This document shows, piece by piece, positions 86 to 33,764 of a DNA stretch of 33,764 nt. The stretch is from the NCBI RefSeq assembly GCF_005405405.1, contig NZ_BJDZ01000032.1:1-33764 (forward strand), written 5' to 3'. This DNA is from Lactiplantibacillus plajomi (GTDB lineage: Bacteria > Bacillota > Bacilli > Lactobacillales > Lactobacillaceae). Under the pieces are notes generated by a model. The model was not told the DNA's origin. It saw only the letters and a list, made by a program, of their open reading frames with translations, and did not search any database. Position 1 is the stretch's first letter. Every line of letters begins with the position of its first letter. The position numbers were made by a program, and so were the translations under genes.

Positions 86-98
86 AATATCATAGAGC

Positions 99-122
99 CC
101 GTATTTATACGGAGGTTTTTTT
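99..122 (+). terminator. Rho-independent terminator of an upstream gene outside the window
   Basis: CCGTAT (99-104) pairs with ATACGG (107-112), which in practice gives a 5-bp stem with a TTTA loop, followed by AGG and seven T (116-122). Rightward orientation. It would end a transcript that enters from the left edge. Confidence 0.6.
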
Positions 123-126
123 GTGT

Positions 127-410
127 AGAGTGTGAAGGTCGCCGGGAGATGCTGAGCACTACCTAGCTAACGCACTGTCACGGGCTATGTGATGGGGCGT
201 TAGCGTAGTAGGCGCAGGCATCTGGCGACCTGAACACGTTTCGACTATTCTGCCAGAACGGTTTATGCAACCGGCACTTAGCGTAGCAAGCGCAGGGAGC
301 TGCCACACCGAACACATTTCAACTATTCTGCCAGAACGGGCTGTGTGATGGTGCGTTAGCGTCCTAGGCGCAGGCATCTGGCGACCTGAACACGTTTCGA
401 CTATCCTGCC
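127..410 (+). repeat. Structured repeat element, family A copy 1, with 3' half tripled
   Basis: The copy starts with AGAGTGTGA (127-135) and then forms a long imperfect hairpin: GGTCGCC 137-143 with GGCGACC 224-230; AGATGC 147-152 with GCATCT 218-223; ACTAC 158-162 with GTAGT 205-209; GCTAACGC 166-173 with GCGTTAGC 197-204. It is followed by GAACACGTTTCGACTAT. The 3' half is then repeated in tandem with a 78-bp period (177-254, 255-332, 333-410). Unit 3 keeps the arm that can pair with the 5' half; unit 2 has diverged there. The same flanks and layout recur at 11202-11373 (minus) and 33497-33664 (plus). I do not recognise it as a named RNA or mobile element. The 78-bp period is a multiple of three, so an open minus-strand frame runs through it, but I do not regard that as a gene. 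Confidence 0.75.
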
Positions 411-5963: not shown

Positions 5964-6227
5964 TTACTCATAATGATTCCAAGCTGAGTAAATATGGACA
6001 ATTTTTCGTTGTTCATCAACTGAGTATACAATTCTATGCTGAATATTTAATCTTCTAGAATATAGCTTATTTTCTGGCGGAAATAACTTCTCAAAATTGT
6101 CTGATACATCGTACGGGTTCACTGCCAGTTTTTTGACGATTTCATCAAGCTTTTTACGTAAGGGACTATTCTTAATCTTTCTTAAATCGTTTTTAGATGA
6201 ATTTTTAAATCGAATTGAGTAACCCAT
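5964..6227 (-). CDS. yoeB: YoeB/Txe family mRNA interferase toxin
   Basis: 87 residues from ATG 6227; an in-frame TTG at 6233 overlaps the antitoxin stop and is the alternative start. The small basic RelE-fold protein has the YoeB signature: a lysine-rich start with KNDLRKIK, the NPYD-x4-FE-L segment, R-x-LN-x-x-HRIVY and the C-terminal HIYSAWNHYE, where the penultimate residues hold the catalytic His-Tyr pair. YoeB toxins cleave mRNA at the ribosomal A site. It lies directly downstream of a YefM-like antitoxin with overlapping or near-touching frames, as usual for this pair. Low G+C compared with neighbours suggests horizontal acquisition. Confidence 0.9.
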   Translation of the reverse strand: MGYSIRFKNSSKNDLRKIKNSPLRKKLDEIVKKLAVNPYDVSDNFEKLFPPENKLYSRRLNIQHRIVYSVDEQRKIVHIYSAWNHYE

Positions 6228-6229
6228 TT

Positions 6230-6493
6230 TCAAATTTTATCCCAATCAACGCCGTTAGTTATGTCCGTTTCACCAGAATCATCTTTCATCGCTCGGTGGA
6301 CTTTACTAAGGGTACCATCATTCATCAAGTAGAGCGTTTCTTGTAAAGCTCGATAATCTTTAGCACTCATAATAACCGCACTATCATCTTCAGTACGTCC
6401 ATTTATTTCTATAGGTGTTGAGTCCTCATTAACCGCTTTAATGATCTTATAAAGATCTTTTCTCGCTTGGGTGGGATTAGTCATCCTTTGCAT
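6230..6493 (-). CDS. yefM: YefM/Phd family antitoxin
   Basis: 87 residues. The N-terminal part carries the Phd/YefM DNA-binding fold (TQARKDLYKIIKAV, then PIEI-NG and AVIMSAKDYRALQETLYLM), the C-terminal tail is acidic and probably disordered until it wraps the toxin. It neutralises the YoeB toxin encoded next and normally represses its own operon, more strongly in complex with the toxin. GGGGGAA lies 10 nt before the ATG at 6493; an internal ATG at 6484 has no better site. Confidence 0.9.
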   Translation of the reverse strand: MQRMTNPTQARKDLYKIIKAVNEDSTPIEINGRTEDDSAVIMSAKDYRALQETLYLMNDGTLSKVHRAMKDDSGETDITNGVDWDKI

Positions 6494-10594: not shown

Positions 10595-10655
10595 GGGGTA
10601 TGAATCCGGTTACACTTACCAGATTCGCTATTCTTATTGAAATTAGGTGATGTGC

Positions 10656-11123
10656 ATGCCAGCTCAATCAGCAGAACAATTATGGAAAGCTTATAACGAA
10701 ACGACCGCGACAAACGGTGCTTCTTACCAGACTCGCTGGTTCGGGGATCAAAACCAACCAGCCGAAGTCCAGGCACTGACCGACCTGGTCCTTAACGGGA
10801 CTAAGACCGCGACGACCACGCCGTTGGATACTTACACCAACGAACAGGTCGCCATTCCGCAAGTCGGGGACTATAACGTCCTTTTGAACGGCGAGATGAA
10901 ACCGGTCGCCATCATTAAGACCGTGGTTTCGGAACTGATTCCCTTTTACCGGATTTCAGCCGAACATGCTTGGCATGAGGGCGAAGGCGACCGTTCGATC
11001 GGTGATTGGCGGAAACGTAAAACCGAAACTTTCGCGCCAACGCTCGAAGCGCACGGGCACCAACTAAACACGGACACCCCGATGGTTAGCGAAGTTTTCG
11101 AAGTCGTTTACCGGGCAGATTAA
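10656..11123 (+). CDS. ASCH domain protein (YqfB-like)
   Basis: 155 residues. An ASCH fold with GTKTATTTPLDTY, then PQVGDYNVLLNGEMKPVAIIKT and the strongly conserved AEHAWHEGEGDRSIGDWRKRK block. ASCH proteins are RNA-binding or nucleoside-modifying (E. coli YqfB is an N4-acetylcytidine amidohydrolase); the activity of this Gram-positive clade is not certain. ATG 10656 is preferred because AGGTGA lies 5 nt upstream; the GTG at 10647 overlaps it. Single gene, followed by a repeat. Confidence 0.85.
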   Translation: MPAQSAEQLWKAYNETTATNGASYQTRWFGDQNQPAEVQALTDLVLNGTKTATTTPLDTYTNEQVAIPQVGDYNVLLNGEMKPVAIIKTVVSELIPFYRISAEHAWHEGEGDRSIGDWRKRKTETFAPTLEAHGHQLNTDTPMVSEVFEVVYRAD

Positions 11124-11146
11124 CCGCCGACACAACCAGCGCGTGG

Positions 11147-11200
11147 GTCAACAGTCGGTTGACTTTGGGCGCATGTTTTAACTATTCTCGTTCGGAGACG
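11147..11200 (+). repeat. Degenerate plus-strand half copy of family A
   Basis: A short hairpin GTCAAC / GTTGAC is followed by GGCGCATGTTTTAACTAT, which resembles the 3' flank GGCGCACGTTTCGACTAT of family A, and by TTCGGA. It is read rightward and meets the full minus-strand copy at the shared palindrome at 11202-11231, so the locus is mirror-symmetric. Confidence 0.6.
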
Positions 11201-11201
11201 G

Positions 11202-11231
11202 AAGGGGCTGTGACATTAGTCACAGCCCCTT
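11202..11231. terminator. 13-bp palindrome, probable bidirectional terminator
   Basis: AAGGGGCTGTGAC / GTCACAGCCCCTT with an ATTA loop. The same core (10 bp) recurs at 33641-33664. T-runs are short, so termination is likely but not certain. It sits exactly at the junction of two convergent repeat copies. Confidence 0.55.
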
Positions 11232-11373
11232 GTATGTTTCCGAATATTGATAGTCGAAACGTGCGCCAAAAGCCAACTGGCTCCGCTTAACCCCGTAAGT
11301 CAAACAATCCAAGCCCAGGATTATTCGCCTTACGCCGTTATGCTCACCAGCTAACCGACTTTTGTCACACTCT
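11202..11373 (-). repeat. Structured repeat element, family A copy 2
   Basis: Read on the minus strand: AGAGTGTGAC (11373-11364), 5' arm with CAAAAGTC and AGCTGG, inner TAACGGCGTAAG, loop, and the 3' arm ending in CTTTTG, then GGCGCACGTTTCGACTAT and the shared palindrome. It is about 90% identical to the copy at 33497-33664. Two differences in the stems turn pairs into G-U in the minus-strand RNA, while in the other strand they would be C-A mismatches; the inner stem has two mismatches. This favours transcription leftward. Confidence 0.75.
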
Positions 11374-33496: not shown

Positions 33497-33664
33497 AGAG
33501 TGTGACAAAAGTCGGTTAGCTGGTGAGCATAACGGCGTAAGACGAATAATCCTGGGCTTAGATTGTTGGACTTACGCCGTTAAGCGGAGCCAGCTGACTT
33601 TTGGCGCACGTTTCGACTATCAATATTCGGACACATGAATGGGCTGTGACATTAGTCACAGCCC
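33497..33664 (+). repeat. Structured repeat element, family A copy 3
   Basis: AGAGTGTGA (33497-33505), then nested stems CAAAAGTC (33506-33513) with GACTTTTG (33596-33603), AGCTGG (33518-33523) with CCAGCT (33590-33595), and TAACGGCGTAAG (33530-33541) with CTTACGCCGTTA (33571-33582), followed by GCGCACGTTTCGACTAT and a palindrome. It is the best-preserved copy. The palindrome GGGCTGTGAC-ATTA-GTCACAGCCC is at 33641-33664. Confidence 0.8.
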
Positions 33665-33666
33665 AT

Positions 33667-33764
33667 TTCCTACGATTAGTCAAGCCCGGATAGTGGAAAC
33701 TTTCCGCCTTGCCGGTTGGTCCTAAAGCGGCTGGAACGTGGTGGACACGACTTTAAGCCAAGCA
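33667..33764. repeat. Degenerate inverted half of family A joined to a partial family B copy
   Basis: ATAGTGGAAACTTTCCGCC (about 33690-33708) resembles the reverse complement of the 3' flank of family A, so the palindrome is again the centre of a mirror. From about 33720, GGCTGGAACGTGGTGGACAC resembles the reverse complement of the family B element at 18861-19020. The copy is cut by the window edge. Confidence 0.5.

What the first reader, a model, noticed from the sequence alone, without database searches (positions are those of the whole stretch)
127..410. Family A: a repeated long hairpin whose stem sequence changes while pairing is kept
Seen: three loci (127-410 plus, 11202-11373 minus, 33497-33664 plus) share AGAGTGTGA at one end and CACGTTTCGACTAT at the other. 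Between these, the copy at 127 pairs GGTCGCC/GGCGACC, AGATGC/GCATCT and GCTAACGC/GCGTTAGC, while the copy at 33497 pairs quite different arms, CAAAAGTC/GACTTTTG, AGCTGG/CCAGCT and TAACGGCGTAAG/CTTACGCCGTTA, in the same order. Same layout with unlike stems is what selection for structure gives. In the third copy, substitutions keep pairs as G-U on one strand only, which suggests an RNA read from AGAGTGTG towards CACGTTTCGACTAT. I know of no named family with this form; the idea of a structured RNA or a hairpin-type mobile element is inference.
Basis: partly seen in the sequence, partly recalled or inferred. Interest (0 to 1): 0.78.

Follow-up and report, generated by a model that had tools for sequence, protein, structure and literature searches.

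The report
Mobile RNA hairpins replacing transcription terminators
The three hairpins belong to a large family of short, gene-free repeats in lactic acid bacteria that tend to sit in the stop signals at gene ends and keep one RNA fold while their sequence is rewritten, which makes them look like mobile elements tuned to terminators.

Summary
The hairpins (127-248 +, 11373-11250 -, 33497-33620 +) belong to a dispersed family: at least 36 matches in this Lactiplantibacillus genome and 123 in a sister species; 58 of 150 relatives match, 4 of them outside the family, with more. One ~124-nt layout is kept while the arms change: 95.7% of cells paired, covariation 0.797 against 0.202 in shuffles. G-U outnumbers A-C 387:23, so the sense strand is what folds. 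No Rfam match. Copies begin directly behind sense stop codons (75 of 138; mirror position 6) or behind terminator-like sequence (21). At three orthologous sites, 23 of 42 loci without the element carry a terminator-like hairpin there (20 of 250 shuffles); at two of them the element, with its own terminator, has taken that place in this genome. Presence varies between sister species. Best reading: a protein-less mobile hairpin that homes to terminators. It resembles the EFAR repeats of enterococci; homology to EFAR was not tested and the mobilising enzyme is unknown.

The parts
127..248 (+). Complete long hairpin, A1 type (AGAGTGTGA ... CACGTTTCGACTAT)
   Evidence: fold z -6.4; R1 122.1 bits; R2 111.5 bits
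249..326 (+). Tandem 3'-half unit 2; its 3' arm does not fit the 5' arm at 127 (duplex -30.2 kcal/mol)
327..404 (+). Tandem 3'-half unit 3; its 3' arm fits the 5' arm as well as the hairpin's own (-57.3 against -55.7 kcal/mol)
   Evidence: (weak hit 280-404, 19 bits)
97..122 (+). Weak terminator-like hairpin with a T7 run just upstream of copy 1
   Evidence: -6.5 kcal/mol, folded as 83-123
11250..11373 (-). Complete long hairpin, A2 type
11202..11231 (.). Terminator-like hairpin shared by the minus-strand copy and a plus-strand short form
11139..11185 (+). Degenerate short form of the element, behind the stop codon of the + strand ASCH-domain gene 10647-11123
   Evidence: (hit 11160-11231 +)
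33497..33620 (+). Complete long hairpin, A2 type
33639..33666 (.). Terminator-like hairpin of the 33497 copy

Best explanation
This is a non-coding mobile repeat. The unit is a long hairpin of about 124 nt with fixed internal loops and freely changing stems, in many copies followed by its own short terminator hairpin (about 170-180 nt in all). It inserts into or just behind stem-loops that end transcripts: ordinary terminators behind stop codons, attenuator terminators, and other copies of itself. At a terminator behind a stop codon it can replace the native hairpin, sometimes leaving part of its stem, and sometimes supplies the stop codon (AGAGTGTGA) and the new terminator. The sense RNA, or the sense DNA strand, must fold, so stems change in matched pairs. 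Shown: dispersal, fold conservation, sense-strand bias, position behind stops and terminators, presence/absence between sister species, and at two orthologous sites an element where relatives have a terminator. Inferred: that an enzyme acting in trans recognises the folded hairpin and moves it, and that the resident copy serves as a 3' end of the mRNA.
For: Covariation on a plain MAFFT alignment of 9 own-genome hairpins: 94.7% of cells paired, 32 of 42 pairs changed on both sides, score 0.786 against 0.231 shuffled and at most 0.146 when slid. On 116 distinct copies: 95.7%, 0.797 against 0.202. On 78 distinct copies from several families: 91.5%, 0.823 against 0.192. G-U 387 against A-C 23. Sharp 5' end: each base of AGAG in at least 97% of 151 copies with a mixed base before it (copies were first required to match [AG]G[AC]G). 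Sense stop codon within -12..+30 nt of the 5' end in 75 of 138, mirror position 6 of 138; within 60 nt 82 against 21; terminator-like sequence at most 14 nt upstream in 21 of 138; either in 93 of 138. Orthologous sites: LysR gene, full element in 3 of 21 species, short form in 1, fragment in 1, no sense copy seen in 16; MFS gene, full in this genome, short form in one sister, none seen in 18 of 20 readable loci; ArgH gene, filled in this genome, not in the other 8 loci fetched (9 of 21 genomes). Of these 42 loci without an element 23 have a terminator-like hairpin in the first 110 nt (MFS 10 of 18, ArgH 6 of 8, LysR 7 of 16), against 20 of 250 shuffles. Flanking inverted repeats of score 12 or more, as left-over stems would give: 9 of 149, 1.5 expected.
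Against: No mobilising enzyme was identified; neighbour proteins were compared only within the fetched loci, about 1.5-4 kb on each side. No general target duplication: direct repeats of score 12 or more are 6 of 149 against 4.8 expected (19 against 12.2 at score 10), and the only long one outside tandem arrays is 25 bp at L015. 19 of 42 loci without the element show no terminator-like hairpin in the first 110 nt. 45 of 138 copies have neither a near sense stop nor a recognised terminator upstream; the window copies at 11373 and 33497 lie upstream of a divergent gene. The upstream gene is on the opposite strand for 40 of 154 hits. Expression was not tested. Gene positions come from a simple ORF caller.
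Confidence: 0.7

Rival explanations
1. A cis-acting 3'-UTR or terminator element kept for host benefit: the fold stabilises or ends the mRNA, and spread is only by occasional duplication.
For: Sense orientation directly behind stop codons in 75 of 138; structure of the sense strand conserved; REP-like and Efa repeats are discussed as mRNA stabilisers (PMC1590033, passage).
Against: Sites are not conserved between sister species (3 full copies of 21 at the LysR site); copies also lie behind attenuator-like terminators, in tandem and nested in other hairpins; copy number runs from 36 to 123 in the five genus genomes, and only 8 were found in G001.
Confidence: 0.16
2. Self-spreading palindromes without any enzyme: polymerase template switching between hairpins copies, nests and corrects them, and covariation is only DNA-level correction of one arm from the other.
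For: Insertion into hairpins; A-X-A and A-B-C-B-A orders of tandem 3' halves, read by eye; one arm pair rewritten with pairing kept at an orthologous site (L084 and L138).
Against: Strong G-U over A-C bias on one strand and a conserved U-G wobble (94 of 116) are not expected of DNA-level correction; internal loops and length are fixed; the 5' end is sharp.
Confidence: 0.11
3. A trans-acting small RNA family, each copy an independent gene with its own terminator.
For: A2-type copies end in a terminator-like hairpin; fold conserved.
Against: Positions -14 to -1 show only A/T richness, no shared motif (promoters further upstream were not examined); stems differ so widely that a shared target sequence is unlikely.
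Confidence: 0.03

Closest known systems
EFAR / Efa-1 palindromic repeats of enterococci (De Gregorio et al. 2009, seen only as a reference in PMC3733652; Efa-1 in PMC2267715; Efa in PMC1590033)
   Same: Efa-1 is 163 bp, intergenic, 65 copies, a pair of adjacent stem-loops (PMC2267715, passages); Efa elements lie preferentially near the 3' ends of genes (PMC1590033, passage). Recalled, not read: modular build, insertion into stem-loop targets whose stems are partly retained.
   Different: Sequence homology to EFAR itself was not tested. The family here is found across Lactobacillaceae and in Trichococcus; a broad model also finds related hairpins in 60 of 105 genomes of a family that is probably Enterococcaceae (family name inferred).
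REP/BIME repeats with RAYT transposases
   Same: Dispersed extragenic palindromes, thought to be mobile (PMC3733652, abstract and passages).
   Different: REPs are 20-40 bp and most bear a GTAG or CGTC tag; this is about 124 nt with internal loops and AGAG/GTTTC ends. RAYT presence not tested.
Group IIC introns
   Same: Insert at intrinsic terminators (PMC4424553, passage).
   Different: The unit is a hairpin of 124-180 nt, too small for an intron with its reverse transcriptase gene.
MITEs such as RUP, NEMIS, ERIC
   Same: Short, non-coding, multi-copy, beside genes (PMC3733652, passage).
   Different: No general target duplication; classical 15-30 bp terminal inverted repeats were not seen, the two ends pairing only as the foot of the hairpin.

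Membership tests
EFAR / Efa-1 | About 160-170 bp made of two adjacent stem-loops | tested here: met
   A2-type copies: long hairpin plus terminator hairpin matched together (query 1-178 of 181). A1-type copies lack the second hairpin in the unit (my reading).
EFAR / Efa-1 | Intergenic, close to the 3' end of genes | tested here: met
   75 of 138 within -12..+30 nt of a sense stop
EFAR / Efa-1 | Inserts into stem-loops, parts of the target stem retained (recalled) | tested here: met
   ArgH and MFS sites; 23 of 42 loci without element have a terminator-like hairpin; inverted-repeat remnants 9 of 149 against 1.5
EFAR / Efa-1 | Sequence homology to EFAR of Enterococcus faecalis | not tested
   No EFAR sequence or named E. 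faecalis chromosome was in reach; a guessed DOI for the paper was not held. R2 hits in family f3 are suggestive only.
REP/RAYT | 20-40 bp palindrome with GTAG or CGTC tag | tested here: not met
   124-nt unit with AGAG 5' end
REP/RAYT | RAYT (Y1) transposase in the genome | not tested
MITE with TIRs | Target-site duplication | tested here: not met
   Direct repeats near background, one 25-bp exception outside tandem arrays
Group IIC intron | Insertion at intrinsic terminators | tested here: met
Group IIC intron | Intron ribozyme domains and reverse transcriptase in the element | tested here: not met
   Unit is 124-180 nt; no Rfam match in the window. A trans-acting RT elsewhere was not searched.
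Known Rfam families | Covariance-model match | tested here: not met
   0 matches over the window at gathering score; two with E-values 0.6 and 1.7 in 1-700, outside the hairpin

The most novel reading that the evidence does not exclude
An order-wide class of protein-less elements in Lactobacillales that spreads as a folded RNA: a trans-acting reverse transcriptase or nuclease recognises one conserved hairpin architecture and rewrites transcription terminators with it, so that dozens to hundreds of gene 3' ends per genome are of mobile-element origin.
Probability: 0.22. Interest if true: 0.85.

Novelty: new variant of a known kind. Interest (0 to 1): 0.6.

Why it matters
It suggests that many gene 3' ends in lactobacilli are shaped by a mobile hairpin that can replace the native terminator and sometimes the stop codon. 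The family offers a clean case of stems rewritten while a fold is kept, and makes testable what enzyme recognises a hairpin rather than a sequence. It also gives models (R1, R2) with which genomes can be annotated; Rfam 15 had no match in this window.

Tried and rejected
Rfam: no family. Distant blastn: PLSDB plasmids with both copy types, GenBank phages with the 127 copy only; no match. IMG/VR with one exact A1-type pattern: none. Coding origin: the reverse-strand ORF 159-422 is the array read backwards; rejected. Transposase or RT beside copies: ORFs of loci L001-L037 and L068-L184 were clustered; the 14 largest clusters shown look like transporters, orthologous neighbours and the array itself; three of them were checked by Pfam (MFS_1, MerR, iron-dependent repressor). 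Target duplication: rejected as a rule. Of 40 loci given to R1 (117 stretches were found), 29 matched and 11 did not: eight not from Lactobacillales by their titles (Kineothrix, Hyphomicrobiales, Brevibacterium, Edaphobacillus, Bacteroidales, Pseudomonadota, Amycolatopsis, Clostridia) and three of Lactobacillaceae (L261, L281, L282). An earlier, stricter pattern found nothing. Placing E. faecalis by blasting two family-f3 loci against plasmids failed. Paper searches (listings seen) showed no such family in lactobacilli; two were for EFAR. Most subscription papers are not in the library. The A-X-A order of tandem 3' halves remains unexplained. On rechecking, one search showed that 19 of 42 empty loci have no recognised terminator close behind the stop; the confidence was lowered from 0.72 to 0.70 for this.

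Full report
What is there. The hairpin proper is about 124 nt: an AGA lead, a GTG/CAC foot, an 8-bp helix, a 4-nt one-sided bulge (GGTT-like), a 7-bp helix, a GA internal loop, a short helix, a CTA/GTA loop in A1 copies, then a 17-bp helix with a GGGCTT-like loop, and a GTTTCGGCTAT tail. The copy at 127 is followed by two 78-nt tandem units that repeat only the loop, 3' arm and tail; the first does not fit the 5' arm, the second fits as well as the hairpin's own. The copies at 11373 and 33497 belong to one subfamily and bring a second, terminator-like hairpin.

Structure. On a plain MAFFT alignment of nine own-genome hairpins, 94.7% of cells pair and 32 of 42 pairs change on both sides; the covariation score is 0.786 against 0.231 in shuffles and 0.071-0.146 when the partner is slid. 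The larger alignments were fitted to the model and so lean towards it, but give the same picture: 0.797 against 0.202 on 116 distinct copies, and 0.823 against 0.192 on 78 distinct copies drawn from several families. On that last alignment the number of pairs with double changes was reached by 73 of 500 shuffles. G-U cells number 387 and A-C cells 23 on the 116 copies; without columns rich in either, 190 and 22. The copies were chosen by a model that may favour G-U somewhat. A U-G wobble is kept in 94 of 116. At one site taken as orthologous from shared neighbours (L084, L138, L182) L138 has a rewritten lowest helix that still pairs, at 84-86% overall identity to the other two.

Distribution. 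R1 matches 36 places in this genome and 123, 55, 45, 58 and 116 in five others (G012, G020, G014, G003, G061); at most 150 candidates per genome were scored, so these are lower bounds. It matches 58 of 150 relatives: all 21 genus genomes searched, own included, 33 others of the family and 4 of other families (strict filters). In whole-family searches it matches 22 of 76 genomes of f5, 5 of 18 of f2 and 1 of 27 of f7, these counts including the four just named; of 36 further handles 1 has a weak match. Named loci confirmed by R1 come from Lactiplantibacillus, Levilactobacillus, Lentilactobacillus, Lapidilactobacillus, Pediococcus, Furfurilactobacillus, Loigolactobacillus, Agrilactobacillus and Trichococcus (29 of the 40 loci scored, of 117 found). 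A model with 42 pairs can be drawn to long hairpins in general, and R2 was not run on an unrelated family, so this last step is suggestive; in the window R2 finds only the three copies, one antisense shadow and the tandem unit.

Where copies sit. Of 156 hits with context, 4 duplicates and 14 second copies of tandems were dropped. Of the remaining 138, 75 begin within -12..+30 nt of a sense stop codon, 6 end within that distance of an antisense stop (82 and 21 within 60 nt), and 21 lie at most 14 nt behind a terminator-like sequence; 93 have one or the other, 45 neither. In 10 of 138 the stop codon is the TGA position of AGAGTGTGA. Several copies follow attenuator-like terminators; in L183 a T-box-like sequence precedes it (my reading, whose output was cut). 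In 11 of the 14 arrays that I printed for their adjacent copies, the next copy starts 0-8 nt behind the GTTT or ATTT of the previous unit.

Mobility and target. Behind a LysR gene, full elements occur in 3 of 21 species with unlike arms (58-76% identity), a short form in one, a fragment in one, and no sense copy was seen in 16 (one of these has antisense copies further on). Behind the MFS gene of L010, this genome has lost the native stop and uses the element's; a short form lies at the same place in G011; the other 18 of 20 readable loci show none in sense there (one of 21 was misread by my motif). Behind ArgH, 9 of 21 orthologs were fetched: this genome is filled, the other eight are not, and five of them keep the same leader followed by a plain hairpin. 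Counted by one rule, 23 of these 42 loci without an element have a terminator-like hairpin in the first 110 nt (10 of 18, 6 of 8, 7 of 16), against 20 of 250 mononucleotide shuffles; 19 do not. Score-12 inverted repeats flank 9 of 149 copies against 1.5 expected; direct repeats are 6 against 4.8. Together this says that the element enters terminator stem-loops and can take their place, though not every site can be shown to have had one.

Comparison. Efa-1 of Enterococcus faecalis (163 bp, 65 copies, two adjacent stem-loops; PMC2267715, passages) and the earlier Efa note (PMC1590033, passages) are the nearest described repeats that I found; PMC3733652 lists EFAR among MITEs and cites De Gregorio et al. 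2009 (passages). That EFAR inserts into stem-loops and keeps part of their stems is recalled, not read. The likeness in build and target is strong; shared descent is untested. Group IIC introns choose the same kind of target (PMC4424553, passages), which is why I rank an RNA-borne mechanism as the most novel open reading. No report of this family in lactobacilli appeared in the listings of searches of the held library.

Noticed in passing
33669-33764: A different repeat (CCTACGATTAGTCAAGCCC ... GGCTGGAACGTGGTGG) abuts the terminator of the 33497 copy and also lies at the start of contig C35; its 16-mer occurs in 18 of 431 loci.
   Followed up: partly
5964-6493 (-): YoeB-like toxin and Phd/YefM antitoxin pair by Pfam.
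   Followed up: partly
L072:3779-4230 and window 127-404: Tandem 3'-half units run in A-B-C-B-A and A-X-A orders, as if each new unit duplicated its host unit; read by eye, unexplained.
   Followed up: partly
L015:1501-1669 and flanks: This copy is flanked by a 25-bp direct repeat, the only long one seen outside tandem arrays.
   Followed up: no
L153, L160: Copies that appear nested inside an older hairpin of similar kind, by eye from the flanks and the flanking inverted repeats.
   Followed up: no
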